Under the pieces are notes generated by a model. It saw nothing but the letters and a program-made list of their open reading frames with translations, made no database searches and had not been told where the DNA came from. A stretch of DNA of 64,000 nucleotides from Armatimonadota bacterium (GTDB taxonomy: Bacteria > Armatimonadota > Fimbriimonadia > Fimbriimonadales > Fimbriimonadaceae), in the NCBI GenBank assembly GCA_025360125.1, contig JANYCU010000045.1, positions 186,001 to 250,000 of the forward strand, given 5' to 3'. Of this stretch, positions 37,389 through 59,131 are shown in pieces. The first letter of the stretch is position 1. Each line of letters opens with the position of its first letter. A program made the position numbers and the translations under genes.

Positions 37389-37474
37389 GCGCGGGTGGTG
37401 AAATTGGTAGACACGCTACCTTGAGGTGGTAGTGCTCACAAGGTGTGAAGGTTCGAGTCCTTTCCCGCGCACCA
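37389..37474 (+). tRNA. tRNA-Leu (GAG)
   Basis: The acceptor stem GCGCGGG pairs with CCCGCGC, and the 3' ACCA is encoded. The anticodon stem CTACC/GGTAG closes the loop TTGAGGT, whose anticodon is GAG, reading CUC leucine codons. The long variable arm and T-arm with TTCGAGT fit a class II tRNA. Its 3' end is the attachment site used by the downstream elements. Confidence 0.95.
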
Positions 37475-41202: not shown

Positions 41203-42336
41203 TTAACCCAGCACACGATCAAGCGAGTGGCGCAGAATTGCTTGGGCGGGCGAGAGTGGCCTCGTGTAGTTCACTTCGGTCACACCGGTCGCCGCGTGTC
41301 CGATGTGTTCCTTGAAGGTCGACGTACTTACCTCGGGCATAAGTTTCTCGATGATGTTGATGTGCGTTAGACGACAGTCGTGGGGAGACATCTCGCTCGG
41401 CAGTCCAGAATCAACGAGAATCGATTTCCAGATCTCGTACACTTGCTTCTTCATCCTAGGCTCATTGAGAGTCGCCTTGGGCCATAGAAAGGCTTCTGGG
41501 CCCATGCCCTCGACATGCGCGAGGAGGATGGATTTGAGCTTTTCGCTCATTACCACTGCTCGCTTCTTGTCACCCTTGGGAAGTCCCATGAACTGCCTGC
41601 CGCCAAAAGCGACCTTGACCGCTTCGTCGACGTCGATGAGGTTGTCAGAAAATCGAAGCTTCGACACCCTCATTGCCATCATTTCGCCGAGCCTCAGACC
41701 GGCGAGGAGCAAGGTGGCAAGCAAGGCGCGCCTGGAAGGATCGAGTTTGTCACTGTCGATACCGACTCTTGCCTCGTCCGGCGCAAGAGCAACAGCGCAG
41801 CGGGCCCTGGGTTGGGGGACGGCGAGGCGAAACGGATTCGCCGTGGTCATGGGGATTCGTCCGTAAGGAACGATCGCCTGGTTGAATGCCCGCACCAAGT
41901 CGGCCCGTACGGAAATCACCAAGGTCTCCTTGGCTCCGTTCGCTCTCAGTTCACGGTAGAAAGCACGGACCTTCATCGGGTCGATCTTCGAAAGGGGCGT
42001 GTTGCCGAAATGCTTCTTCGTGTACTTCCTGAACCTCCGTTTCCGCTGTTCGATGGTGACGGCGGCCAACGACTCAGGCCAGTCGTGCTCGGCGAGCCAT
42101 CCGAACCATTCCTCCAGGGTCATTTCCCGGTTTTGCCGGGCAGTCTCGATCTTTGTCCCTCGATGTAATAACCGAAGAAAGTCCTTGCCTTCGGTCTTGG
42201 TTGAAAAGATGCGGGACAGCCGTTGCCTGTGCCCGGTCGGGGTCTCGACGGCGTACTGTACGCGCCACTTCCCTCTGTGTTTACCTGTCAAGACTTCGCG
42301 GCATGATCCGTCCTTACTGTCTGCTCTTGTTGCCAT
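41203..42336 (-). CDS. int: Tyrosine site-specific integrase
   Basis: Catalyses integration into the tRNA-Leu 3' end and, with an excisionase, excision. The 377 residues have an N-terminal arm-binding domain, a core-binding SAM-like domain (ESLAAVTIEQRKRRFRKY) and a catalytic domain. Arg in LAGLRLGEM, His-x-x-Arg in SPHDCRLTH, the EHIGH box and the nucleophilic Tyr in VNYTRP are all present. A truncated homologue lies at 38300. It faces the attachment site, as usual. Confidence 0.93.
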   Translation of the reverse strand: MATRADSKDGSCREVLTGKHRGKWRVQYAVETPTGHRQRLSRIFSTKTEGKDFLRLLHRGTKIETARQNREMTLEEWFGWLAEHDWPESLAAVTIEQRKRRFRKYTKKHFGNTPLSKIDPMKVRAFYRELRANGAKETLVISVRADLVRAFNQAIVPYGRIPMTTANPFRLAVPQPRARCAVALAPDEARVGIDSDKLDPSRRALLATLLLAGLRLGEMMAMRVSKLRFSDNLIDVDEAVKVAFGGRQFMGLPKGDKKRAVVMSEKLKSILLAHVEGMGPEAFLWPKATLNEPRMKKQVYEIWKSILVDSGLPSEMSPHDCRLTHINIIEKLMPEVSTSTFKEHIGHAATGVTEVNYTRPLSPAQAILRHSLDRVLG

Positions 42337-43076: not shown

Positions 43077-43985
43077 TCAGTCCGCCAGGTCAATTCCCCT
43101 GATGTAGTCCGCCGCCTTCTGTGCCTGAGCCGCCGCGATTACCACTGCCTTCGGGTCGTTCTGGAGCGACTGGAGCCAGGAATCCACGTATGAAGCCGAC
43201 GCCGGAATGGTGTTGTCGATTCCGACCGCCGCGCAGCAGAACGAGCTCGTAAGCTCGGCGACGAGCTCTTCTCGCCCGTAGTCCTCGGAGCCGAAATGGA
43301 TCTTGCCCATGACGCCCTTTCGGTTCAGCCGTTTCTCATGACCCGTCGAATGGCCGAGTTCGTGGAAGGTCGTGGCGTAGTAGTGGTCCACGGTGTCGAA
43401 CCGGCTGATCTTCGGGACACGTACCGTGTCCTCGCTCGGCAGATAGAACGCCTGGTCGCCCCGTTCCTCGATGAACGGCGGGTTCGGCATGGAGCAGATC
43501 AGGGCTTCTGCGCTACGGATGCGGTCGTCGGGCGATGCGGTTCCCGTGTGGAGTATCGGCGCGAGGGCCAGTCCCTCGCACTGCTCGGCGTTGAAAACGT
43601 TGAAGTACTTGAGGACTGGTATGGTCTTTCGTTTCGGGGAATCCGAGCCTTCCGCTTCGTCTTCCTTCTGCCAGTACTTCCAGAAGACCACCATCGTGGA
43701 CTTTTCTCCGGGCCTTACCTTGCCGCCGAGTTCCTTGGCCTGCCGGAAGGTCAGCCAGCGGTGGTCCTCGTAGGGCCCGAGGCCGAGAAGCAGGACGTTC
43801 ACGCCCCTGTAGGGCTTGGAAGTGACGGCGTTGCTCGGCAGCGACCGGTTGGTCCTCCACGGCTTCCGCCAGGGAACCACTCCCTCCTTGAGGGAATCGA
43901 CGATCTTTTGGGTGACGAGTTCGTACAGGTTCCGGCTCACGGCTGCGCCTCGCGGCGCGGCCCCGGAATGGGGTTTGCATTGCAT
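43077..43985 (-). CDS. ArdC-like antirestriction protein with zincin domain
   Basis: 302 residues. The N-terminal ssDNA-binding domain of the ArdC type (YELVTQKIVDSLKEGVVPWRKPW, then LLLGLGPYEDHRWLTF) is followed by an M-x type zinc protease-like domain with HELGHSTGHEKRLNRKG (about 213-229) and an upstream acidic motif. Such proteins protect incoming single-stranded DNA of conjugative elements from host nucleases. Start at the ATG at 43985. Confidence 0.88.
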   Translation of the reverse strand: MQCKPHSGAAPRGAAVSRNLYELVTQKIVDSLKEGVVPWRKPWRTNRSLPSNAVTSKPYRGVNVLLLGLGPYEDHRWLTFRQAKELGGKVRPGEKSTMVVFWKYWQKEDEAEGSDSPKRKTIPVLKYFNVFNAEQCEGLALAPILHTGTASPDDRIRSAEALICSMPNPPFIEERGDQAFYLPSEDTVRVPKISRFDTVDHYYATTFHELGHSTGHEKRLNRKGVMGKIHFGSEDYGREELVAELTSSFCCAAVGIDNTIPASASYVDSWLQSLQNDPKAVVIAAAQAQKAADYIRGIDLAD

Positions 43986-48524: not shown

Positions 48525-51500
48525 TCATTCGTCGGTTTCCTCGTCTACGTCAGAACTCACGCAAATCAGCGCGAACGGGCAACCTGGGCACGAGAAGGCC
48601 TCCCACTTGGGTGGATACGGTCCTGACTCTGCCTTTGTCGCCAGTTCGACCAGCTGTTTGGGCCTCTTTGCAACCAAGCCAGCGGACGCGGTTGAAAGTT
48701 CCTCGCGATCAAGAAGCGGATATGAAATTCTGACCGAAGATTCTCTGCCGGGAAAAACCGATGAGGCGACGGAACCTAGAAGCGCAGGAAGGAAGGTCTT
48801 CGAGTCCGAACCTAAGTGTGCCTTCGCTGGCCGGTCGTAATGGACGACTCTCAGAACCGCGGGACTTCCGTCCTCGATTTCGTCTGCCGGAATGGAGAAC
48901 GTTCGACCATCGCATACAAGCTCCACGGTCTGGTTAGGCGCGATGCTGGCTCCGCCCGCGAGCTTCCCGTGAAACGCGGTCAGTGCGACAAGTGCTTTTT
49001 CCCTGAACTTGCTCTCGTACCAATGGCCTGCCGGTCCCGTCGCCTCCCAAGCGGCGTCTAGGCAGGCTAAAGCCTCTCCAAGGGAAGGCAGGGAACCTTC
49101 CTTATGGCTCTCGGCCATCGATATCTTGACGTCGGTTATAACCCTGTTGAAATCACGAAAACCCTTGTCTCCGGAAGATAGGTTTAAGATGTAGTAATAC
49201 TCGAACCGCTTTGGACACCTTTGGAACGTCCGGATCATACCGAAGGGAATCGTAGATCCAAATTGGAACCCTTCGGACCTTGCGATGACTGCCTCGGTAA
49301 CTGACAGAGGCAGTGACTGGGCGAAAGTGACGTGCTCCAGGTATCCATTTGCCACGAGCTCGGGCCCTAGATGATCCAAAAGAGGAGAAGGCTTTGCAGC
49401 CTTGCCATACTTGTCCGCAACCGAAATGACGAGCCGGTCCTTAGCTCTTGTTAGGGCGACGTAAAACAGGCACGGCTCTTCGGAATCCTCGTCAGCGGCG
49501 TCGAGCCCCTTGATCAGGCCGTCGGGAATCGGCAGCGAAGTGTGGTGCGACGTGTTCGGAAACTTGCCTTTCGCCAGGAATGGCAAAAGTACTGCCGACC
49601 ACTCCAGGCCCTTGCTTCCGTGAACGGTCGTCACCGTAACGCAATCGGGATCTAGAAGATCGGGGGTAACCGCATCGAGCTTTCCTGACTGGGCGCATGC
49701 CTCCACGAATTCCAGGAACTCGCGTATCTGGAGCCTTCCTTGGGTGTCGGGCGAGGCGGTTCGAAACGACCTGGCCATGGAGCTAACTTGTCGAATGGTC
49801 GTCAGGGCGCGTCTCGCCGACGGCCTTTCGTCGAGCAGCAGTTCTCTCACCAAGGACGAGTACTCAAACAGGTACGTCGCCAACGCATGGAAGACTGTCG
49901 GCTGGACGCCCATGGCACCCACAAGTTGCTTAAGTTTTCGCAGGGTGTTCAGTCCCTCGGTTGAAAGTCCGTGAATATCTCCATCGCATGCGGCATGAAT
50001 GGCGCTTAGGGCCGACGGAACGTGCTCGTCGGTCCATTTCAGGAGGACACCGAGGTCTCGTTTCGCGAGCTTGTATTCTTGGCCACCCGTCACCCGTACG
50101 AGTCCGCGGAGGTCGCCGACTGCCAGATAAAGCATGCCGAACAGGTCCTTGAAGGCCGCCGAACCCAGCAGGTCTCCCGACCAACTCGTCGCTATTCCCT
50201 GCTGCTCAAGTGCGTCCGATGCCTTCTGGGCGTCAGAGCGCGTCCTGCAAAGTACCGCGACGCCATTCGCGCCGAACCTGGCCTTGAATTCCTTTGCGGC
50301 CTCGACCACGGACTTCAGTTCGCTGGGTCCGTCCGGGGCCCTCAGAATTCTGACTCCAGGACCGTCCGGAGAATTGCCCCGATGAGCCACGAGCTTTGCT
50401 GTAGGCAGGTGGCTCACGTCGCCGCGCTGCGGGATCTGTACGGCCTGTCCACACGAAACGATGTCCTGGAACGACCGGTAGTTCGTGTTCAGAGTGATGA
50501 TGTCTGCTCCCGGATAGTCCTTGAGAAATCCTGCGATATTGCTGGGCGAGGCACCCCTAAACCTGTAAATGCTTTGTTTGAGATCTCCAACCGCCCAAAC
50601 CTTGGTATTTGGTCCCGCCAGTGCCCTGACCAACCTGCCGCTGGCAAAATTTATGTCCTGGAACTCGTCGACCAGGATATGGTCGTACTCGGACCTGAGC
50701 AAGTCTCCGGCTGGCGTTTGTTCCAGAAGACGCACGGTCAATGAGATAAGGTCGCCGTAGTCGGCCCTGGTGTTATCTTGGAGCAGCTTCTCGTAGGAGG
50801 CGTAGAAATTCCCTGCGTCGATTGCGCGTCTTCCAGCAAGCTCGGCTTCATCGGATTCGGAATCGCCCAACTGCTTTTCTGCAAGGGCAATATATTCGCG
50901 GGGCGATGCCAATTCGTCCTTGGCCCTTGAAATTGAGTCCAGAAGAAGCCCCAAATTACTGGCGGGGTTCATTAGGTTTTCAAACGACCCAAGCGGCATT
51001 TTTGACAGGTTCTTCTTTAGGAAGGCGATCAGTTCGGCTGGCGTCAGGAGCTTTGGCTCGCCGACATATCCAATATGCTCGCCGTGGATTTTCAGCGTCT
51101 CCAACCCAAACGAATGAAGGGTGAACACCGCAAGCTCGTGGGCATGTTCGGGCATCGCTTTGGACAGGCGTTCCCTCATCTCCGACGCGGCCTTGTTGCT
51201 GAAAGTGAGGGCCAAAATTCTTCGGGCCGGAATTTTTCCTTCCTTTACAAGCCTTTCGAACCGGCGGACCAGTATCCTGGTCTTACCTGCTCCGGGACCG
51301 GCCAAGACGAGGGCCGGACCGAGGGCATTGACGGCCCTGTCGTGATCGTCGTCCTTCGTCAGGACGGGAGTTATGCCGTTTTTCACAACGGCCGGATGGT
51401 CTGGACGCAGGGCCGCAGTGATTTGGTTCATCATGGCCGCCTTGGAAAGCCCGAAGTGGGCGGCCAGGCTTTCTACCGACCAGTCCCGTTGCTGCAACAA

Positions 51501-51962
51501 CCGCTCCCTCACCATGTGTAGAGGGGCCAACAGTTCCCCGGCGAACACGTTGGCCTCAAGCTCGTAGGCTCCTTTCGAGTTGTAGCTCCTGTAAATCCCG
51601 TTCTGAACGGTCAGGGCGTCGAAATCCGGGGACTCGTCGATGTCGAATTCCGTATCCAGAACCTTTTGTTCCGGATGTTCAAGAGCCCTATGGGCAATTT
51701 CATGGGCAACGGTGTAGGCACGCCTTCCTTCATTGAGCCCGGGCCCGTAACTGATAGTGTCGTATTTCAGGTCCAATTGCCCCACAACGCCATCCGGAAG
51801 TTCCGAATCCTCGACGACTCCCAGCTTGAAGCATTGGTCTGCAATCTCGGTCAAGACCTCGATCACCGGTCGCGTGCCTCGCTCAAAAGGATGGCCGGTC
51901 TTGGCCTCGTACTCCGCGATGACGGACTGGGCCCTTGAGCGGATGGCGGAGTAACGGTCCAC
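48525..51962 (-). CDS. ImmA/IrrE protease - UvrD helicase - RecB-type C-terminus fusion
   Basis: A 1,145-residue fusion. Residues 1-160 are an ImmA/IrrE metalloprotease with VAHEIAHRALEH (87-91 HEIAH). Residues about 210-870 are a UvrD/PcrA helicase with Walker A AGPGAGKTR, DHILVDEFQDIN and VHGSKGLEWS, plus FYVALTRAKDRL. The C-terminus has Cys916 in TFQRCPKRF, then CPGC (1125-1128) and Cys1134, the iron-sulfur pattern of AddB/Cas4-type domains. The position expected for D-x-K reads VVHYDRP, so the nuclease may be inactive. Its first gene neighbour is an XRE-like protein overlapping by 1 bp. Confidence 0.88.
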   Translation of the reverse strand: MDRYSAIRSRAQSVIAEYEAKTGHPFERGTRPVIEVLTEIADQCFKLGVVEDSELPDGVVGQLDLKYDTISYGPGLNEGRRAYTVAHEIAHRALEHPEQKVLDTEFDIDESPDFDALTVQNGIYRSYNSKGAYELEANVFAGELLAPLHMVRERLLQQRDWSVESLAAHFGLSKAAMMNQITAALRPDHPAVVKNGITPVLTKDDDHDRAVNALGPALVLAGPGAGKTRILVRRFERLVKEGKIPARRILALTFSNKAASEMRERLSKAMPEHAHELAVFTLHSFGLETLKIHGEHIGYVGEPKLLTPAELIAFLKKNLSKMPLGSFENLMNPASNLGLLLDSISRAKDELASPREYIALAEKQLGDSESDEAELAGRRAIDAGNFYASYEKLLQDNTRADYGDLISLTVRLLEQTPAGDLLRSEYDHILVDEFQDINFASGRLVRALAGPNTKVWAVGDLKQSIYRFRGASPSNIAGFLKDYPGADIITLNTNYRSFQDIVSCGQAVQIPQRGDVSHLPTAKLVAHRGNSPDGPGVRILRAPDGPSELKSVVEAAKEFKARFGANGVAVLCRTRSDAQKASDALEQQGIATSWSGDLLGSAAFKDLFGMLYLAVGDLRGLVRVTGGQEYKLAKRDLGVLLKWTDEHVPSALSAIHAACDGDIHGLSTEGLNTLRKLKQLVGAMGVQPTVFHALATYLFEYSSLVRELLLDERPSARRALTTIRQVSSMARSFRTASPDTQGRLQIREFLEFVEACAQSGKLDAVTPDLLDPDCVTVTTVHGSKGLEWSAVLLPFLAKGKFPNTSHHTSLPIPDGLIKGLDAADEDSEEPCLFYVALTRAKDRLVISVADKYGKAAKPSPLLDHLGPELVANGYLEHVTFAQSLPLSVTEAVIARSEGFQFGSTIPFGMIRTFQRCPKRFEYYYILNLSSGDKGFRDFNRVITDVKISMAESHKEGSLPSLGEALACLDAAWEATGPAGHWYESKFREKALVALTAFHGKLAGGASIAPNQTVELVCDGRTFSIPADEIEDGSPAVLRVVHYDRPAKAHLGSDSKTFLPALLGSVASSVFPGRESSVRISYPLLDREELSTASAGLVAKRPKQLVELATKAESGPYPPKWEAFSCPGCPFALICVSSDVDEETDE

Positions 51963-52540
51963 TAGTCTTGCTCCGACATCCAGTCTTCAATCTGGGATTG
52001 GTTCAATTTGCCCTTGGAGCGTAATTCGGCCAAGACATCGCCAAACGCCCGTTGGGCGTGGGTCACTGGCCTTGGCGTGCCAACTGCACGGTAATGGGAG
52101 GCCATTTCCGGATTTGGCGGTTGCGCAGAAACCAGCGGCCAAATGTTCTCCGTAGATTGCTTCAAGGTGCGCGCCAACCTGACAACTAGCTTTTCCGGAA
52201 TCTCCGTGAGAGTGCGCCGCTGAATCATTAGGATGATCTCGTTGGGAATGTTTACCGACGTTGCGACCACGTTCGGACTCACTCCGATCTCCCTGATTCG
52301 ACCAGTAAGATCGGACGCCTTGGTTCGCGAAACGTCCATTAGCCGACGCACGGATTCCAGCGTCTCGTCGTCGCATCCTTCTGATCCAGACTCGGGGTTG
52401 CTTCCTGAAAACAGCATGGCCTCCCAAAAGATCTGGATCACTTCGTCTTGTTGGTCGGGAAAGTTGACGAGGTATTGGTCCAAAGCCGGAGTCAGACCGG
52501 CTTCGATCTCTGCATATATTTTCTTTTCTATGTTATTCAA
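51962..52540 (-). CDS. XRE-like protein partnered with the ImmA fusion
   Basis: 192 residues. The middle (ISPNVVATSVNIPNEIILMIQRR, then LTEIPEKLVVRLARTL) fits a helix-turn-helix of the XRE type. A helical N-terminus and an acidic C-terminus (NQSQIEDWMSEQD) surround it. ImmA/IrrE proteases normally cleave such an XRE-family repressor encoded next door. The same relationship is inferred here. Confidence 0.65.
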   Translation of the reverse strand: MNNIEKKIYAEIEAGLTPALDQYLVNFPDQQDEVIQIFWEAMLFSGSNPESGSEGCDDETLESVRRLMDVSRTKASDLTGRIREIGVSPNVVATSVNIPNEIILMIQRRTLTEIPEKLVVRLARTLKQSTENIWPLVSAQPPNPEMASHYRAVGTPRPVTHAQRAFGDVLAELRSKGKLNQSQIEDWMSEQD

Positions 52541-52581: not shown

Positions 52582-53310
52582 TCACTGGTTCAAGTCTGTT
52601 CGAACCCGCTCAAGCCCGTCAAGGTGGCGATTGCGAATTGTTCTTTCCGTAACGTGTTGTTCGGCTGCTATCTCCGCGTAGCTGGCTCCTTGGAAAAAAC
52701 GTACCGCTACGAGCCTTAGGTCTTCTGGAAGACGATTCACCGCGTCCCATACATGACCTTCGGCCATCGAGTCCTCAAAGCTTGAGTCACAGAGTACGGC
52801 CGACTTCTTTGTACTCTTTTTCGCTGATCTGGGATCGGAGACTTCCTGGCTCCCATTGACGGGAGTTAGGCTAACGAGTTGGTCTTCTCCCGGGGCATGC
52901 TTGCCAATGAGGGCATTTTCCCTTTGGCAGTCGCGTATCGCATTGCGGCACCGCTTGAAAAAGCAGGCACTAAAGCAGTCCTCAAAGTTCGCGAACGCGG
53001 GACTAATATTGCATACGCAGGCCCGAAGCACGCCCACCATCTTTATTACTGCGTCCTCAAAGTATAGGTGGTCTTTTGATCCTAGCGCAGAAAGGGCATA
53101 TCTCGCGACCTTAGTTTCGAGGCGTTCCTCCAACTTTCCGAGCAAATCCAAGGCGGTATCCCGCTCCCGTCCCGCTTCCGCCGTCTTGCCCGCCAGTTCG
53201 AAAGCTTCGCCACGACGGAGCCTGTCGCGAATGCGTCCCACGATCTCGCCCAGTACTTGGGACTCCGTCAATTGCCTGTCTTCTGCCGTCTTTATAGATT
53301 CATCTTCCAT
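52582..53310 (-). CDS. Sigma-70 family RNA polymerase sigma factor
   Basis: 242 residues from the ATG at 53310, behind a GAGGGG ribosome site. A region 2-like section (FANFEDCFSACFFKRCRNAIRDCQRE) and a clear region 4 (VNRLPEDLRLVAVRFFQGAS, YAEIAAEQHVTERTIRNRHL) are separated by a variable linker. The N-terminal 90 residues are an unusual extension. It leads the operon with the XRE-like and ImmA-UvrD genes and may direct transcription of this island. Confidence 0.8.
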   Translation of the reverse strand: MEDESIKTAEDRQLTESQVLGEIVGRIRDRLRRGEAFELAGKTAEAGRERDTALDLLGKLEERLETKVARYALSALGSKDHLYFEDAVIKMVGVLRACVCNISPAFANFEDCFSACFFKRCRNAIRDCQRENALIGKHAPGEDQLVSLTPVNGSQEVSDPRSAKKSTKKSAVLCDSSFEDSMAEGHVWDAVNRLPEDLRLVAVRFFQGASYAEIAAEQHVTERTIRNRHLDGLERVRTDLNQ

Positions 53311-53517
53311 CACCACCCCTCTTCAATTTTGCTAGCAACATAGCTTCCATATATTCCATCACCACTTTATAGACGGATCGGAAAAGATTCTCGGTGAATT
53401 TTTTATCGAGAGGAATTTTCACGAAGGGTTTCCAAATCGAAGGTGGTCCGGTGATGGAACTAATACAAGTGCGGCGATCGCTGTTCAACGAATCCGGCAC
53501 CCATATTGGTAACTCAA
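53311..53517. promoter_or_regulatory. Divergent promoter region between sigma and ubiquitin-like operons
   Basis: About 200 AT-rich bases serve both operons. I can see no clear -35/-10 pair or perfect palindrome beyond a lone GCGATCGC octamer near 53474. A sigma-factor-dependent promoter for the right-hand operon is plausible but unproven. Confidence 0.35.
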
Positions 53518-53811
53518 ATGCAGAACGACGAAACTCAGAACCCAACTCATGACGTTGCCGGCCAAAAGCCTGTCGACCCTTATGAAATCGTAATTCTCGT
53601 AAACCGCCACAAGGTGGTTTTTAAGACCGAAACGTCCACCGGATACACGGTGAAGCTTGCGGCAATTGCGCAGGGCGTACCCAACGTCCAGGCGGACTTC
53701 GATCTCTTTAAGGTTGAAGGAGACAAGCAAACGCTGATTGAAAACCAGGAACCCCTTCACCTCCATAGTAAGGATGTCTTCCTTATGCTTACCCCGGATC
53801 ACAGCTCATAA
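53518..53811 (+). CDS. Ubiquitin-like protein (Ubl)
   Basis: 97 residues from the ATG at 53518. After a disordered 20-residue start comes a single beta-grasp domain: YEIVILVNRHKVVFK (strands 1-2), YTVKLAAIAQGVP (helix), DFDLFKVEGDKQTL (strands 3-4) and HSKDVFLMLT (last strand). This fits the bacterial multiubiquitin/DUF2604-type Ubl. The C-terminus ends PDHSS, without the usual Gly-Gly. It is the first gene of a four-gene operon and overlaps the E2 start by 1 bp. It is the presumed modifier. Confidence 0.8.
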   Translation: MQNDETQNPTHDVAGQKPVDPYEIVILVNRHKVVFKTETSTGYTVKLAAIAQGVPNVQADFDLFKVEGDKQTLIENQEPLHLHSKDVFLMLTPDHSS

Positions 53812-54194
53812 TGACGGATGAAATTAAGGCGGCCGTAGAAGAATTGAAGGCCGCCTTTCCGGGTCACGGTGTTTCGACGGAGGACGGGCCGAATGGTGGG
53901 GCATTCGTAAAAGTCTCCGATCTGGACTTCGGGCCGACCCTCATTCCGAAGGAGAATTGGATCGGGTTCACGATACCCGCAGGCTATCCCTTTGCGGACG
54001 TTTATCCCCACTTCACGCCATTGGGCCTTAGGCGGGTGGACGGCCGAGAACTTGGGGAAGGTCTTACCGGGCAGGTTCCGTGGAACGATATCACCTGCAA
54101 TCAGATTTCGAGGAGGACCAACGGATGGAACCCTTCCGTTGACACGGCCGCTACGAAACTTGTGAAGGTTCTTCAATGGCTGAGGACACGATGA
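53811..54194 (+). CDS. E2-like conjugating protein (prokaryotic UBC type E)
   Basis: 127 residues. The order of a hydrophobic N-terminal helix, a beta-meander with GFTIPAGYPFADVYPHF, then NDITCNQISRR with a conserved Cys (Cys96) and a Trp-containing tail (GWNPSVDTAATKLVKVLQWL) fits the bacterial E2-E family of ubiquitin-conjugating folds. Cys96 is the candidate thioester carrier. It overlaps the Ubl gene by 1 bp and the E1 gene by 4 bp. Confidence 0.8.
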   Translation: MTDEIKAAVEELKAAFPGHGVSTEDGPNGGAFVKVSDLDFGPTLIPKENWIGFTIPAGYPFADVYPHFTPLGLRRVDGRELGEGLTGQVPWNDITCNQISRRTNGWNPSVDTAATKLVKVLQWLRTR

Positions 54195-55693
54195 CAGACT
54201 CATTACAACTACGAATTACTAACGCAGACTTTGCAGTGCTGAACGAACATCTCTTGCGTGATGACCATGACGAGCATGCTGCTCTCGTTCTATGCGGCAT
54301 TGTGCGAACCGATCACCAGACCCGTTTGTTGGTCCGGCAGGTCGTCCTCGCCGAAGACGGAACGGACTTCGTGCACAGCCAGCATGGGTACAAAGAACTG
54401 ACGAGCCGATTCATTGCTAAGTGGGCGTCATATTGCGCCAAGGAAAACCTAATCTATCTGGCAGCACACAATCACTTCGGTAAAGACACCGTCGAGTTCT
54501 CTCCCAATGACCTTGAATCTCACGAGAGGTGCTATCCTGCCCTAATAGACATTACCGGGCATCCAGTCGGCGCCCTTGTGTTCGCCAAGAATGCCGTTGC
54601 CGGAGATATCTGGTTCCAAAAGTCGCGAGAGGTGCTAGATTCGATGGTGGTCATCGGTCCCAGGATGCGAGCCCTTCGCCCTGGACCTCGGACATGTGGC
54701 CCGGACGTATCCGAACTTTATGATCGTCATGTTCGGCTCTTCGGAGAGGAAGGTCAGCGAATCCTGCAGGGCCTCAAGGTAACTATAATGGGCGCCGGTG
54801 GCGGCGGTTCGCTCACGAATCAATGGTCAGCTCACCTTGGAGTAGGACATCTAGTAGTTATAGACCCAGATACTATCGACAAAACGAACCGTCCGAGAAT
54901 AGTTGGGTCAGAGCCAAGGGATATTCGGAAGAAGACGCATAAGGTCAGGATTGCCGAGCGAGTTGCCAAGACCGCTCAGCCTGGAATTAGATTCGAAGGC
55001 ATCGTGGGTGATGAGCGCTATATTGATGTCGTCCGAAAAGTCATCGATTCAGACGTAATCATTCTTGCTGGAGATAGCTATCGAAGCCGTTTGCTCTTCA
55101 ATGCAATCGTCCACCAATATATGATTCCTGGGTTTCACGTGGGCGTTCATATTCTGCCAGACACTCTAACTGGACAGGTTGCCGAAATAAAGGTTGAGTC
55201 AAGATGTGTCCTTCCGGCCTTTGGAGGAGGCTGCTTGCTCTGCAATAATTTCATTCCAGCTGAGAAACTACGTCTGGAGGGATTGTCCGTGAGCGAACGA
55301 CGCGCCCAAGCATACGGAGACCAGCAGTTCGCAGAGGCGGCTCCCGAGCCAAGCGTAATTACCCTAAATGTCCTATCGGCGGCACATGTTGTTAATGACA
55401 TCATGATGATGTTTACAGGACTATTTCGAGACGAAGTGGAGCTTGAGTCTTTACGTTACATAGCATTAGATCGACGTCTGTTTCGCGTAAGTCACATCTC
55501 GAAGCATGATTGTCTTCATTGTGGAAGTGGAGATCGCAGCGCTAAGGGACGAGGTGACACAAAGTCGTTGCCAATGCAAATCAATCGGCCGGATACCGAC
55601 AACTCAGTCAAATGGATCAAGACTCGTGTCGTGCTACTATACGGCTTCATTGCTAGGTTGTGGAATACTGCCGGATCAAAAACCGCTCAATAA
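54191..55693 (+). CDS. JAB isopeptidase - ThiF/E1 fusion
   Basis: 500 residues. The N-terminal JAB/JAMM metalloprotease has Glu28 and H93-x-H95 then S104-x-x-D107 (AAHNHFGKDTVEFSPND), one residue longer than the canonical spacing. From about 190 a ThiF/E1 adenylation domain follows: GAGGGGS (201-207), VVIDPDTID, TNRPR, and two CxxC pairs (348/351 and 441/444) typical of the structural zinc of ThiF/MoeB. The product should both activate and remove or mature the Ubl. Start ATG 54191 overlaps the E2 stop. Confidence 0.9.
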   Translation: MTDSLQLRITNADFAVLNEHLLRDDHDEHAALVLCGIVRTDHQTRLLVRQVVLAEDGTDFVHSQHGYKELTSRFIAKWASYCAKENLIYLAAHNHFGKDTVEFSPNDLESHERCYPALIDITGHPVGALVFAKNAVAGDIWFQKSREVLDSMVVIGPRMRALRPGPRTCGPDVSELYDRHVRLFGEEGQRILQGLKVTIMGAGGGGSLTNQWSAHLGVGHLVVIDPDTIDKTNRPRIVGSEPRDIRKKTHKVRIAERVAKTAQPGIRFEGIVGDERYIDVVRKVIDSDVIILAGDSYRSRLLFNAIVHQYMIPGFHVGVHILPDTLTGQVAEIKVESRCVLPAFGGGCLLCNNFIPAEKLRLEGLSVSERRAQAYGDQQFAEAAPEPSVITLNVLSAAHVVNDIMMMFTGLFRDEVELESLRYIALDRRLFRVSHISKHDCLHCGSGDRSAKGRGDTKSLPMQINRPDTDNSVKWIKTRVVLLYGFIARLWNTAGSKTAQ

Positions 55694-55739
55694 AGGGCAT
55701 CGATACAAAACATTTCGAGGAGAATCAAGAGGCAATCAA

Positions 55740-56036
55740 ATGAGCAGCAACTACCTATATTCGTCGAGGGGGCAGGCGGTGGGATACGTGAGGGGACGCT
55801 TTATTTACACGATGCGCGGAAAGGCGGTTGGTCAAATAAGCGGAACTCACGTTCACAAGCTTTCGGGACCGTATGTCGGTGAGCTTGACCATGACATGGT
55901 CGTTGACAAGCATATGGGCAACTATGGCAACATTGGAAACCCAAGTAACCCAGGCAATGCCGGATCACCTGGCAACCCAGGGAGTCGAGGATCTCAGAAC
56001 TACGGCTACAAGGATGTTTTCGACAAACTCTTGTAA
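55740..56036 (+). CDS. Beta-flower-like small protein with Gly-rich tail
   Basis: 98 residues. Four similar units of about 16 residues (YLYSSRGQAVGYVRG, RFIYTMRGKAVGQISG, THVHKLSGPYVGEL, then DMVVDKHMGNYGNI) give the pattern of the four-fold beta-flower family. A tail of GNP/GSP-type triplets (GNPSNPGNAGSPGNPGSRG) ends in YKDVFDKLL. A GGAGA ribosome site precedes the ATG. It is the fourth gene of the Ubl operon. Its role is unknown; it may be a target or a structural part. Confidence 0.7.
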   Translation: MSSNYLYSSRGQAVGYVRGRFIYTMRGKAVGQISGTHVHKLSGPYVGELDHDMVVDKHMGNYGNIGNPSNPGNAGSPGNPGSRGSQNYGYKDVFDKLL

Positions 56037-56150: not shown

Positions 56151-57776
56151 TCACTCTGTTGAAAGCCGAAACTCTTCCCATGCAGCCAGCCAAATAGGAT
56201 GACCAACCCCAAAAGGTTGGTCTTTCTTGCTTTCAGAGCGACTTTTTTGACTTTCGAAATTGAGTTCTTCTAAAGGCATCTTTTCGGATACTTTCGAGGA
56301 ATTCGTCAGGGCAACTGCTTTGGCAAGCTGTCGGTACGCAGGTCGGTATTCCGGCATGACTGCATCGTTGCTGACTCGAATCGAGGCAAAGACCGTATGC
56401 AGAACGGCACGCCGATCTGAACCCTCGGACTTCAAATATAATTGACCGGCATTTCGTCCGATCGAATAGACTTCTGCTTTTGACTTAAAGTGCTCGGATA
56501 GGTCATTTTCAACCGTTTCTCGGGCTTCCTGAGTTCGAGCCAGCTCGGTTAAGCTCTCTAACCGTTTCCGATCGTAGTCCTCGCGGCTCAGATCGCCTTC
56601 AATGCGAAGTTCAAGAAGCCGTTCTAGCCTCTTACCTAGTGACTTGAGTTTGGCCTCAAGTTCTTCTCGTCGGGATTCTTGGAGTGCCATAACGTCTCGA
56701 CTTTGACTTGTTAAGGCTCGGTATATCCAGTCGGCCAATCGCGTATTATTCACTTCTAAAACTTGGAGGTAAGGCAGTAGATCACTTTCTGTGCATTCTT
56801 GTTTCCTCGAGGTACGACACGAACATGCCTGATACTGCTTGCAGTAACCGTACACGAAATTGCCATGACCTTCCCAGCTCATGAGCTTCCCACACGAGTC
56901 GCAAAGCACAATGCCCTTGAGGGGATAGTCGTGTTTGCGATAGCGTCTCGCACCCTCACCCCCACCTTTTCGCTTCATGCGAATTTGAACGTTCTTAAAT
57001 ACTTCCTGTTTAATGATTGGCACATGTGCTCCTGGCCAGACCTTTCCCCGGAACTTCATCTGGCCGACATAGAATGGATCCTGCAGCAGCATGTGAATCC
57101 TGCTCGCCATTACCTTATGACGATTGGCGTTTCGGAGGCCCAGTTCTTCCATCTTATTCGCGAGGCGCGGAATTGAATATTCACCTGAATTATAGAGTTC
57201 AAACATCATCTCGATGAATGGTACGGTAACCCTATCCACCTGTAAGGGTGAAGTCGGGTGGGTTCTGTCCCGGAAATACCCTAATGGCGCTTTCGTTGGC
57301 CATATGCCGCGCTTTAGCATCACGTCCGCAGCCTTCAATACTTCCTCGCTCAAGTTGTCGCTAGAATGTTTTGCTACCGCTAAGTGCATATTCCATACGA
57401 ACTTCGTCGTCGATGCGGCGTATTTGTGGATGTCGAGCGACTGCTTCACTAAATGAACATGCCGGTTCGCGTCATGCTCAAGCCACTCATCGATGAGAAC
57501 CGCATCGCGACTTCCAGACCTGGAGACTCTATCGACCTTTTCCGCTACGATGTGGCAAATGCCTGTCCGCTGAACCTCCTTCACAAATTCCTGAAATTTT
57601 TTGCGCTGCTCGTATTTCGAAGCAGTCTCCGAAAAGGACCAGACGAAGGCAACTCCGATACTTTTTCGTTCGCAATGCTCTCGGAGGAGCTTTTCTTGCG
57701 CTTCAAGGCTATATCCTTCTTCCTGGTCTTTGGTGCTGACTCGGCAGAGCAGCGCAGCAGTTTGGTGTTTGTTCAT
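56151..57776 (-). CDS. Large serine recombinase
   Basis: 541 residues from the ATG at 57776. The resolvase domain starts AALLCRVSTKDQEEGYSLEAQ (Ser nucleophile in CRVST) and has VDRVSRSGSRDAVLIDEWL. The recombinase domain has GYFRDRTHPTSPLQVDRV, then a zinc-ribbon region (VLCDSCGKLMSWEGHG to CSCRTSRKQECTE) and a coiled coil. It catalyses integration and excision between short att sites. It ends 115 bp from the Ubl operon and may have delivered it. Confidence 0.92.
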   Translation of the reverse strand: MNKHQTAALLCRVSTKDQEEGYSLEAQEKLLREHCERKSIGVAFVWSFSETASKYEQRKKFQEFVKEVQRTGICHIVAEKVDRVSRSGSRDAVLIDEWLEHDANRHVHLVKQSLDIHKYAASTTKFVWNMHLAVAKHSSDNLSEEVLKAADVMLKRGIWPTKAPLGYFRDRTHPTSPLQVDRVTVPFIEMMFELYNSGEYSIPRLANKMEELGLRNANRHKVMASRIHMLLQDPFYVGQMKFRGKVWPGAHVPIIKQEVFKNVQIRMKRKGGGEGARRYRKHDYPLKGIVLCDSCGKLMSWEGHGNFVYGYCKQYQACSCRTSRKQECTESDLLPYLQVLEVNNTRLADWIYRALTSQSRDVMALQESRREELEAKLKSLGKRLERLLELRIEGDLSREDYDRKRLESLTELARTQEARETVENDLSEHFKSKAEVYSIGRNAGQLYLKSEGSDRRAVLHTVFASIRVSNDAVMPEYRPAYRQLAKAVALTNSSKVSEKMPLEELNFESQKSRSESKKDQPFGVGHPIWLAAWEEFRLSTE

Positions 57777-57931
57777 GAACGATTGATTAGCCAATGAAAA
57801 AGAAGGACAGCCCTGTGCTTTCCCAAATCGCACACCCTTCGATGTACTTTCTGGACAGGACTGCCCTTCTAAGGCAGAAAGGATATGAAGAAGGGATTGC
57901 GTCTACGATTCGGGAAAGCACTTGCATGATA

Positions 57932-58196: not shown

Positions 58197-58625
58197 ATGA
58201 ACAACCACCCACCTAACCAGGTCTTCGGACCGGCCGTCAATCGGATTGCCGATATGATGGCGCATTGCACGCGGTTCCAGTTTCGCGGCACCGCCCAGCT
58301 CGCGTATGACGCGGGCGTATTTCCCTCGTCCGTAACCCGGTTGATCCACGGACAGATCAACCCTTCGTTCCTGCTCGTGGCGCGCATTACCTCGGCACTT
58401 GAAAGGCAGCTCGGCTTCAATATCGATCCCCGGGACCTGGTCGGCGAATCGGGACAGTTCTTGACGAAATTCCTTTGCGAGGCCGTCGGTTGTCCCGGCT
58501 GCCTGCCCGAGAACGCTACCGGCCCTACCCAGGAACTCAATCCACTGTTCGACGGGATAAGGCAGGGAGAATGGGTGACCTCGAAGTATCCGCGCGGTTT
58601 TAAGAACGTTAACGAGGCCCGATGA
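58197..58625 (+). CDS. XRE-like HTH protein
   Basis: 142 residues from the ATG at 58197, behind GGGAG. The helix-turn-helix reads GTAQLAYDAGVFPSSVTRLIHGQ. C-terminal CPGC is a possible metal pair. It overlaps the next gene by 4 bp. A likely regulator of the Mrr/replication operon. Confidence 0.7.
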   Translation: MNNHPPNQVFGPAVNRIADMMAHCTRFQFRGTAQLAYDAGVFPSSVTRLIHGQINPSFLLVARITSALERQLGFNIDPRDLVGESGQFLTKFLCEAVGCPGCLPENATGPTQELNPLFDGIRQGEWVTSKYPRGFKNVNEAR

Positions 58626-59131
58626 ACACAAACCCGCCGCTTGAAACAGTGCTTCGTGAATGCTCGCTGCACTCGCTGCTCATGCTCGTCTCCAAGGCGC
58701 TGACTCGCACAGGATACGGGGACGTGGAGATACTGGACCGGAGGCACGCGAGACAAAAGTCCAGGTACGGAGGTCACGAGATTGTCTGCTATACGACGCT
58801 CGGTTCGGTTCCGGCAAAGGTGGTTGTTAAAGTCATCAATGACGTGGTGAGAGTCCGAATGCTCGACGAACTCGCTGGCGTTGTAGACCGCCAGAAGGCG
58901 GACATCGGGCTCATCGTTACTCCGTGGCACGCCAGCGACAACGCGCTTAATGAGCTCAAGCGCTATTGCAGGTCGAGGATTGAGATCCTCGACGGCAACG
59001 CCATTGCACAGATTCTCGTCCGTCACAAGATCGGGGTGCGTCCAAAGGGCGACATCGACTACGCCTTTTTCGCCTATCTGGAGCATGCATCCGAAGAGAT
59101 CCTCGGGTTCATCGAATCGCAGAAGGAATGA
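58622..59131 (+). CDS. Mrr-like restriction endonuclease
   Basis: 169 residues. A PD-(D/E)XK fold of the Mrr type with LTRTGYGDVEILDRRHARQK (Asp), GHEIVCYTTLG, KVVVKVINDVVRV, and ADIGLIVTPWHAS. The core E/Q-x-K reads VVKV. It is coupled at both ends by ATGA overlaps to a regulator and a small protein. It may act as a DNA endonuclease for defence or as a nickase; the active site is atypical. Confidence 0.75.
   Translation: MNTNPPLETVLRECSLHSLLMLVSKALTRTGYGDVEILDRRHARQKSRYGGHEIVCYTTLGSVPAKVVVKVINDVVRVRMLDELAGVVDRQKADIGLIVTPWHASDNALNELKRYCRSRIEILDGNAIAQILVRHKIGVRPKGDIDYAFFAYLEHASEEILGFIESQKE

What the first reader, a model, noticed from the sequence alone, without database searches (positions are those of the whole stretch)
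53518..56036. Compact ubiquitin-like conjugation operon on a tRNA-integrated element
Four tightly overlapping genes encode a single-domain Ubl, an E2-like protein with one candidate catalytic Cys, a protein that fuses a JAB isopeptidase to a ThiF/E1 domain, and a small repeat protein. Seen directly: domain order, overlaps of 1 and 4 bp, and the motifs listed in the features. Known: bacterial E1-E2-JAB-Ubl sets (for example Bil and CBASS Cap2/Cap3) act in phage defence. Inferred: this is a member with an unusual layout and a fourth component of unknown role, and may modify phage or host proteins.
Basis: partly seen in the sequence, partly recalled or inferred. Interest (0 to 1): 0.85.

Follow-up and report, generated by a model that had tools for sequence, protein, structure and literature searches.

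The report
Bacterial ubiquitin-like operon, serine-ended modifier
A bacterial mobile element carries a three-gene protein-tagging set of the recently described Bub kind, but its ubiquitin-like tag belongs to a widespread branch that ends in serine instead of glycine and has an E2-like partner without a conserved cysteine, which suggests tagging without the usual chemistry.

Summary
The operon is real: a single-domain Ubl (53518-53811), an E2-fold protein (53811-54194) and a JAMM peptidase fused to an E1/ThiF domain (54176 or 54191-55693), on a mobile element inserted at tRNA-Leu. The layout is known: it fits operon type "6e" of Iyer et al. 2006, and all three parts match solved Bub or multi-ubiquitin proteins. 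Cys96 of the E2-like protein occurs in 1 of 86 relatives; 49 of 86 have no Cys in the aligned part. The fourth gene is a 4-fold beta-flower protein found beside this operon in 1 of 89 loci, so it is probably cargo. What is unexpected: the window belongs to a clade, sampled in about 16 phyla, in which 84 of 85 Ubls end in Ser (75 in Asn-Ser, typically DDNS). The E2-like protein has an invariant Ser100 (86/86), no non-zinc Cys is conserved throughout the JAB-E1, and DUF6527 (BubE by recall) is undetected in 89 loci, against 10 of 10 Gly-tailed or fused relatives examined. Most likely this is a Cys-independent, oxyester-type conjugation pathway for a serine-ended modifier, reversed by JAMM and induced by DNA damage. 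Homology is shown; chemistry, targets and phage defence are inferred.

The parts
53518..53811 (+). Single-domain beta-grasp Ubl, 97 aa, encoded C-terminus ...LTPDHSS; last residue Ser97
   Evidence: family profile hit to solved multi-ubiquitin protein 9cd2; AF2 model; tails of 85 family Ubls
53811..54194 (+). E2-fold, BubB-like protein, 127 aa; Cys96 not conserved; Ser100, Lys116, Trp123, Pro60, Tyr65, Pro66 the same in 86 of 86
   Evidence: Prok-E2_E E=0.0053, below its cut-off; family profile to BubB 9eae_C, E=3.1e-8
54176..55693 (+). BubCD-like protein: N-terminal JAMM isopeptidase motif and E1/ThiF adenylation domain with a 4-Cys zinc-type site; start 54176 or 54191
   Evidence: (family profile to Citrobacter BubCD 9ea4, E=6.2e-71)
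55740..56036 (+). 4-fold beta-flower protein with Gly-rich tail; neighbouring gene, probably cargo
   Evidence: PF21784 E=1.9e-12; not found in the flanks of the other 88 loci; 64.6% identical to an Arthrobacter plasmid protein with no such operon within the 9.3 kb shown
52582..53316 (-). Sigma-70 region 4-like protein, divergent from the operon (201 bp between start codons); candidate regulator
   Evidence: L015 has a sigma-70-annotated gene in the same order; L032 and L033 have genes of similar size there, but phmmer with the window protein found no other locus and the L032 protein has no Pfam hit
51962..52540 (-). Small protein between the sigma-like gene and the helicase; no Pfam hit
48525..51962 (-). 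ImmA/IrrE (Peptidase_M78) domain fused to a UvrD-type helicase, with a PD-(D/E)XK match below cut-off at the C-terminus; candidate DNA-damage sensor
   Evidence: the same fusion just upstream of the operon in L015, L032, L033
37389..37474 (+). tRNA-Leu(GAG); its last 56 bp (37419-37474) are the left direct repeat of the element
41203..42336 (-). Tyrosine integrase (Phage_integrase, E=3.5e-10)

Best explanation
The three core genes form a Bub-type (6e) ubiquitin-like conjugation pathway of a distinct serine-tail clade. Proposed mechanism: (1) DNA damage, for example from phage, relieves repression through a linked HTH/ImmA-type regulator, in this window a sigma-like plus ImmA-UvrD fusion module [inferred]. 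(2) The Ubl is made with its final C-terminus, so no trimming is needed [inferred from the encoded tails]. (3) The ThiF/E1 domain adenylates the terminal Ser carboxylate [inferred; ATP-site residues conserved]. (4) The Ubl passes to a hydroxyl, probably Ser100 of the E2-fold protein and possibly Ser393 or Thr396 of the E1, as an oxyester, because no suitable Cys is conserved [inferred]. (5) It is transferred to a target amine [inferred], and the JAMM domain of the same polypeptide removes it [inferred; motif conserved]. The beta-flower gene is not part of the system.
For: All three families match solved proteins: BubCD (9ea4, profile E=6.2e-71), BubB (9eae_C, E=3.1e-8; top structural match, Z 13.7), multi-ubiquitin protein 9cd2 (E=2.2e-8). 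JAMM residues: E33 82/88, H98 87/88, H100, S109 and D112 88/88; E1 residues R184, G206/208/209/211, R241 and K256 88/88 (L097 with a partial E1 was left out). The only Cys conserved throughout the JAB-E1 are the four zinc-type ones (86 of the 86 rows with letters there); Cys at column 292 is in 72 of 88, Ser in the window. E2: Ser100 86/86, Cys96 1/86, no Cys in the aligned part of 49/86; the same Ser aligns in Citrobacter BubB. Each of the 86 E1 rows with letters has Ser or Thr at 393 or 396. Ubl: terminal Ser 84/85 (83 of 84 distinct 80-residue ends), Asn-Ser 75/85, all six Ser codons used. Loci were picked by JAB-E1 or E2 similarity, not by tail. DUF6527: 0/89 loci at E<=1e-3, of which 84 hold at least 1 kb and 76 at least 3 kb downstream, against 10/10 Gly-tailed or fused relatives examined, 6 of them held out of the profile. 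ImmA/IrrE-type ORF within 2.5 kb upstream: 57 of 81 eligible loci. The 88 serine-tail E1s lie on one side of a branch with SH-aLRT 100.
Against: No biochemistry could be done. Iyer et al. 2006 read the Cys-less E2-like domain as catalytically inactive. Ser393 is Ala in the 10 Gly-tailed or fused relatives fetched, though Ser in solved Citrobacter BubCD, so it is not a general Bub nucleophile; Thr396 is Ala or Gly in 16 of the 86 serine-tail rows. That Bub works through oxyesters, and that DUF6527 is BubE, a serine protease, are recalled from Ye et al. (NSMB 2026), which is not held. Three Gly-tailed Ubls (L014, L112, L114) end exactly at Gly yet their loci keep DUF6527, so its absence here cannot be explained by trimming alone. 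The L087 Ubl ORF does not end in Ser; it looks cut short, cause not tested. The sigma-like gene shows no detected similarity to its positional counterparts.
Confidence: 0.6

Rival explanations
1. The E2-fold protein is a catalytically dead RWD/UEV-like scaffold; the E1 domain adenylates the Ubl and passes it straight from the adenylate to a protein or small-molecule amine, in the style of MccB/MoeB-type E1s.
For: Iyer et al. 2006 call the 6e E2 domain inactive. TSG101 UEV domains are among the next-best structural matches (Z 9.8 and below). MoeB and MccB are detected relatives of the E1 domain. No Cys is conserved in the E2.
Against: Ser100 is the same in 86/86 and aligns with a Ser in Citrobacter BubB; a pure scaffold need not keep one hydroxyl, though a structural role is possible.
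Confidence: 0.25
2. The Ubl is not conjugated in the usual sense; the DDNS tail is a docking or regulatory signal and the Ubl acts by self-assembly.
For: Citrobacter and Methylobacterium multi-ubiquitin proteins are solved as filaments (entry titles). The tail is strongly conserved and acidic.
Against: E1 and JAMM catalytic residues are kept in nearly all members. The window Ubl has one domain, while the solved filament proteins are longer, 247 and 261 residues, and named multi-ubiquitin.
Confidence: 0.1
3. The beta-flower protein is a true fourth component, for example a membrane-associated substrate or effector of the Ubl.
For: Same strand, 46 bp after JAB-E1, no + strand terminator-like site between them; the only beta-flower gene found in this genome, none in the 60 relatives searched with it.
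Against: Not found in the flanks of the other 88 loci; PF21784 found in 1 of 78 distinct genomes searched that hold the operon, and not in that operon's flanks; the one plasmid homologue lies on an Arthrobacter plasmid with no such operon within the 9.3 kb shown.
Confidence: 0.08
4. A sulphur-carrier pathway of the ThiS/MoaD kind rather than protein modification.
For: The E1 domain is ThiF/MoeB-like.
Against: No Gly-Gly tail, a fused JAMM peptidase and an E2-fold partner, no ThiF or MoeB equivalog cut-off reached.
Confidence: 0.02

Closest known systems
Bub (bacterial ubiquitination-like) pathway, Citrobacter BubA/BubB/BubCD (PDB 9ea4, 9ea5, 9ea8, 9eae, 9eav)
   Same: Same three parts, same JAMM-E1 fusion order, E2 without the Cys but with the same aligned Ser; HTH and ImmA-type genes lie near some Gly-tailed relatives too
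   Different: Solved BubA constructs end at Gly229; in a related Citrobacter freundii plasmid Ubl and E2 are one ORF and a DUF6527 gene follows JAB-E1. Here the Ubl is a separate one-domain gene ending in Ser and DUF6527 is not found
Operon type 6e of Iyer, Burroughs and Aravind 2006
   Same: One-to-three-repeat Ubl, inactive-looking E2/RWD domain sometimes a separate gene between Ubl and JAB-E1, JAB at the N-terminus of E1 (section 14 read)
   Different: Section 14 does not mention a Ser C-terminus; it describes a further Cys/His protein (probably DUF6527, by eye) that is not found here
Bil (bacterial ISG15-like) BilABCD
   Same: Ubl, E2, E1 and JAMM; linked to phage defence
   Different: Bil has separate E1 and JAMM genes, E2 Cys138 and E1 Cys417, and a C-terminal Gly exposed by its JAMM (PMC11354881, passages seen)
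Type II CBASS Cap2/Cap3
   Same: E1/E2/JAB chemistry family in defence systems
   Different: Cap2 fuses E2 to E1 and acts on a cyclase (recalled); PADLOC E1-E2 models match only the E1 part here (best E=1.9e-8) and nothing matched the E2-like protein
4-fold beta-flower family PF21784 (Durairaj et al. 2023, PMC10584680, passages seen)
   Same: The fourth gene is a member over Pfam's cut-off
   Different: No link to ubiquitin-like systems in the passages seen; a full-text search for the terms beta-flower and ubiquitin together listed one paper, on the beta-trefoil fold

Membership tests
Bub / 6e operon | Ubl homologous to bacterial multi-ubiquitin proteins | tested here: met
   Family profile to 9cd2, E=2.2e-8; top Foldseek rows are multi-ubiquitin proteins, best E=1.5e-3; no Pfam or NCBIfam hit for the window Ubl alone
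Bub / 6e operon | E2/RWD-like protein without the catalytic Cys | tested here: met
   (Cys96 in 1/86); BubB matches
Bub / 6e operon | JAMM domain N-terminal to E1 in one protein | tested here: met
   Profile match to BubCD residues 8-404 and JAMM motif; no Pfam JAB hit
Bub / 6e operon | DUF6527 gene in the operon (present in the 10 Gly-tailed or fused relatives examined; whether it defines Bub in print was not checked) | tested here: not met
   0 of 89 loci at E<=1e-3 against 10 of 10 relatives, 6 held out of the profile; hence filed as a variant, not a canonical member
Bub / 6e operon | Ubl with C-terminal Gly | tested here: not met
   84 of 85 end in Ser; solved Citrobacter BubA constructs end in Gly
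Bub / 6e operon | Oxyester intermediates | not testable with these tools
   Recalled from Ye et al. 2026; paper not held
Bil (BilABCD) | E2 with catalytic Cys; separate E1 and JAMM genes | tested here: not met
   Bil features from PMC11354881 (passages)
CBASS Cap2/Cap3 | E2-E1 fusion next to a CD-NTase | tested here: inconclusive
   E2 and E1 are separate here and PADLOC shows only E1-part hits; a CD-NTase was not searched for directly
Experimentally shown anti-phage systems | Protection against phage | not testable with these tools
   No assay; Bub not yet shown to protect (PMC13373217, passages)

The most novel reading that the evidence does not exclude
A ubiquitin-like pathway that relies on neither a terminal glycine nor catalytic cysteines: a modifier with a genetically encoded ...D-D-N-S C-terminus is adenylated at its terminal serine, carried as an oxyester on an invariant serine of an E2-fold protein, joined to targets and removed by a JAMM domain fused to its own E1, in bacteria of about 16 phyla.
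Probability: 0.4. Interest if true: 0.85.

Novelty: new variant of a known kind. Interest (0 to 1): 0.6.

Why it matters
A terminal glycine and a relay of catalytic cysteines are usually taken as hallmarks of ubiquitin-like conjugation. A broad bacterial clade that keeps the E1, the E2 fold and the JAMM peptidase but ends its modifier in Ser and has no conserved E2 Cys would show which parts of the chemistry are dispensable. It also offers a small three-gene system for testing serine-based Ubl transfer.

Tried and rejected
Cys96 as catalytic residue: rejected. Beta-flower as a conserved fourth component: not supported. Terminal Ser as a by-product of overlap with the E2 start codon: rejected, since all six Ser codons occur, and by a mechanical look-up 36 of 85 Ubl genes have a 4-bp overlap with an in-frame E2 start while the other 49 do not, with Ser kept in all of these but L087. 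Intein-like Asn cyclisation at the Asn-Ser end: considered and dropped, because Asn is replaced by Asp, His, Cys or Ser in 10 of 85, the window included (intein logic recalled). Relatives in viral contigs: two scans confirmed none. NCBIfam gave only ThiF/E1-type hits below cut-off plus one irrelevant weak hit, and no PADLOC model matched the Ubl or the E2. A recurrent downstream partner was sought by clustering neighbours: among clusters in at least four loci none outside the core is mainly downstream and co-directional; one protein of about 525 aa recurs in 12 of 89 loci, 9 times downstream on the opposite strand, with no Pfam hit for the one member scanned. The key Bub papers (PMC12885553, PMC12145246, PMC11476048 and preprint 10.1101/2024.11.21.623953) are not held, so whether the serine-tail clade is already described there is unknown. 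The listings (20 of 8,083 shown; 2 of 2; 2 of 2; 12 of 1,382 shown) named no paper that describes it; only titles and abstract starts were seen.

Corrections and exclusions. One search picked the worst instead of the best hit where a locus had several; counts come from then on. The 89 loci are 8 of the 12 plasmid loci fetched, the 80 genome loci and the window. Dropped before counting: L007 (same operon as L080), L014, L016 and L017 (Gly-tailed or fused), L002/L004 (same as L019), L003/L005 (Gly-tailed) and L001/L018 (window copies). L008 and L026 have identical JAB-E1 proteins and both count. No E2 was found in L025, L038 and L098, and no Ubl in these and L031: L025, L031 and L038 begin within about 300 bp of a contig edge; L098 does not. 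L097's partial E1 was left out of the E1 counts. L087 was left out of the Ubl alignments. The beta-flower search in flanks used one sequence and flanks of varying length; L044's genome was not searched.
Full report
Setting. The window is part of a 4.13 Mb genome. Its order-mate G069 has a 43,656-base contig that bears the same operon as L019, whose record has the same length and is titled Armatimonadetes bacterium, so the host is inferred to belong to Armatimonadota. An E2 relative was found in 3 of 291 genomes of the phylum, the window's own included.

Anatomy. Genes run Ubl 53518-53811, E2-like 53811-54194, JAB-E1 54176 or 54191-55693, then a 46-bp gap and a beta-flower gene 55740-56036. Upstream and divergent lie a sigma-70 region 4-like gene, a small gene without a Pfam hit, and an ImmA/IrrE domain fused to a UvrD helicase. 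The last 56 bp of tRNA-Leu recur exactly 51.3 kb further on (88714 in window numbering), and again at 104024 and 159652, so this is the first of three stretches bounded by such repeats. It carries a tyrosine integrase, ArdC, a TrwB/TraD-like coupling protein and a replication-relaxation protein, which suggests an integrative conjugative or mobilisable element.

Family membership. Family profiles searched against solved structures give Citrobacter BubCD for JAB-E1 (E=6.2e-71), BubB for the E2 (E=3.1e-8) and a bacterial multi-ubiquitin protein for the Ubl (E=2.2e-8). The window E2 alone found no relative there, and Pfam gave no family for the Ubl and no JAB domain for JAB-E1. AF2 models agree: E2 pLDDT 94.8 with BubB as best match (Z 13.7, rmsd 2.4, 120 aligned; eukaryotic UEVs and E2s at 9.8 and below), Ubl pLDDT 85.7 with multi-ubiquitin proteins at the top though none at E<=0.001. 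The layout fits operon type 6e of Iyer et al. 2006.

The serine-tail clade. A genome scan by JAB-E1 gave 80 loci, the best 80 of 89 confirmed, and plasmid searches gave more. Of 89 loci analysed, 85 had a detectable Ubl and 86 an E2-like protein. The Ubl ends in Ser in 84 of 85 and in Asn-Ser in 75 of 85; positions -3 and -4 are Asp in 77 and 78. The exception, L087, has an ORF that looks cut short. The terminal Ser is one of four invariant columns in an alignment of 53 Ubls (L087 not among them) at 20-41% identity to the window. The window tail is PDHSS. By contrast solved BubA constructs end in Gly. In the Gly-tailed relatives fetched, separate Ubl genes carry a Gly at or near the C-terminus (NFG, TEG, TFGGGV, TFGRS, TFGHGNH), and the fused ones have Gly at the junction (TEG in L016, L113 and L115; NNG in L100). 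DUF6527 is found in all 10 of these loci (4 used to build the profile, 6 held out) and in none of the 89 serine-tail loci; 84 of the 89 hold at least 1 kb and 76 at least 3 kb downstream. In a quick tree the 88 serine-tail E1s lie on one side of a branch with support 100, apart from 5 Gly-tailed or fused rows; two of the latter have very long branches, and the program warns that long branches meet. Record titles and the tree name about 16 phyla, many of them from metagenome-assembled genomes.

Catalytic residues. JAMM and ATP-site residues are kept. In the E2-like protein Ser100, Lys116, Trp123, Pro60, Tyr65 and Pro66 are the same in 86 of 86, while Cys96 is private to the window. In the JAB-E1 the only Cys conserved throughout are the zinc-type ones; column 292 is Cys in 72 of 88 but Ser in the window. 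At positions 393/396 each of the 86 rows with letters has Ser or Thr at one or both; the 10 Gly-tailed or fused relatives have Ala at 393 and Ser or Thr at 396, while solved BubCD has Ser and Thr. With the recalled claim that Bub works through oxyesters, a serine relay is the most likely mechanism, but a scaffold role for the E2 remains open.

Regulation. An ImmA/IrrE-type ORF lies within 2.5 kb upstream in 57 of 81 eligible loci, 44 divergent and 13 co-directional. PMC13373217 reports that 219 of 544 Bub operons are associated with CapW or CapH+CapP, regulators that respond to DNA damage (passages seen). In the window and in L015, L032 and L033 the ImmA domain is fused to a UvrD helicase, 1,120-1,150 aa in all; in the latter three the gene is co-directional with the operon, in the window divergent. 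A fused peptidase-helicase could couple damage sensing to derepression; this is inference.

The fourth gene. The beta-flower protein is the only one found in this genome and none was found in 60 relatives. PF21784 was found in 1 of 78 distinct genomes searched that bear the operon, and no flank other than the window's gave a hit. Its one plasmid homologue, 64.6% identical, lies on an Arthrobacter plasmid next to a helicase gene; phage records gave none. It is best treated as mobile cargo.

Limits. Picking loci by similarity to the window's clade means that the border with Gly-tailed Bubs was sampled thinly (10 loci). The papers that define Bub could not be read. No function was tested.

Noticed in passing
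window 37419-37474; further exact copies at 88714, 104024 and 159652 in window numbering (G000:C56): Four direct repeats of the tRNA-Leu 3' end delimit three stretches (51.3, 15.3 and 55.6 kb) in a row, suggesting accretion of elements at one tRNA gene.
   Followed up: partly
window 48525-51962 (-), L015, L032, L033: ImmA/IrrE peptidase domain fused to a UvrD helicase, beside the same operon in four loci and preceded by two smaller genes.
   Followed up: partly
L054, L059, L061 and nine other loci: A protein of about 525 aa recurs beside the operon in 12 of 89 loci, 9 times downstream on the opposite strand; the one member scanned has no Pfam hit.
   Followed up: no
window 56151-57833 (-): A large serine recombinase lies just downstream of the beta-flower gene, although the element also has a tyrosine integrase.
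   Followed up: no
window 43080-43985 (-) and 58622-59131 (+): An ArdC-type anti-restriction protein and an Mrr-type restriction endonuclease domain protein on the same element.
   Followed up: no
window, about 55610-55690: The window JAB-E1 has a hydrophobic C-terminal extension; only 5 of the other 87 aligned rows have five or more residues there.
   Followed up: no
L014, L017, L111: In these Gly-tailed relatives a gene annotated phosphotransferase sits between JAB-E1 and DUF6527.
   Followed up: no
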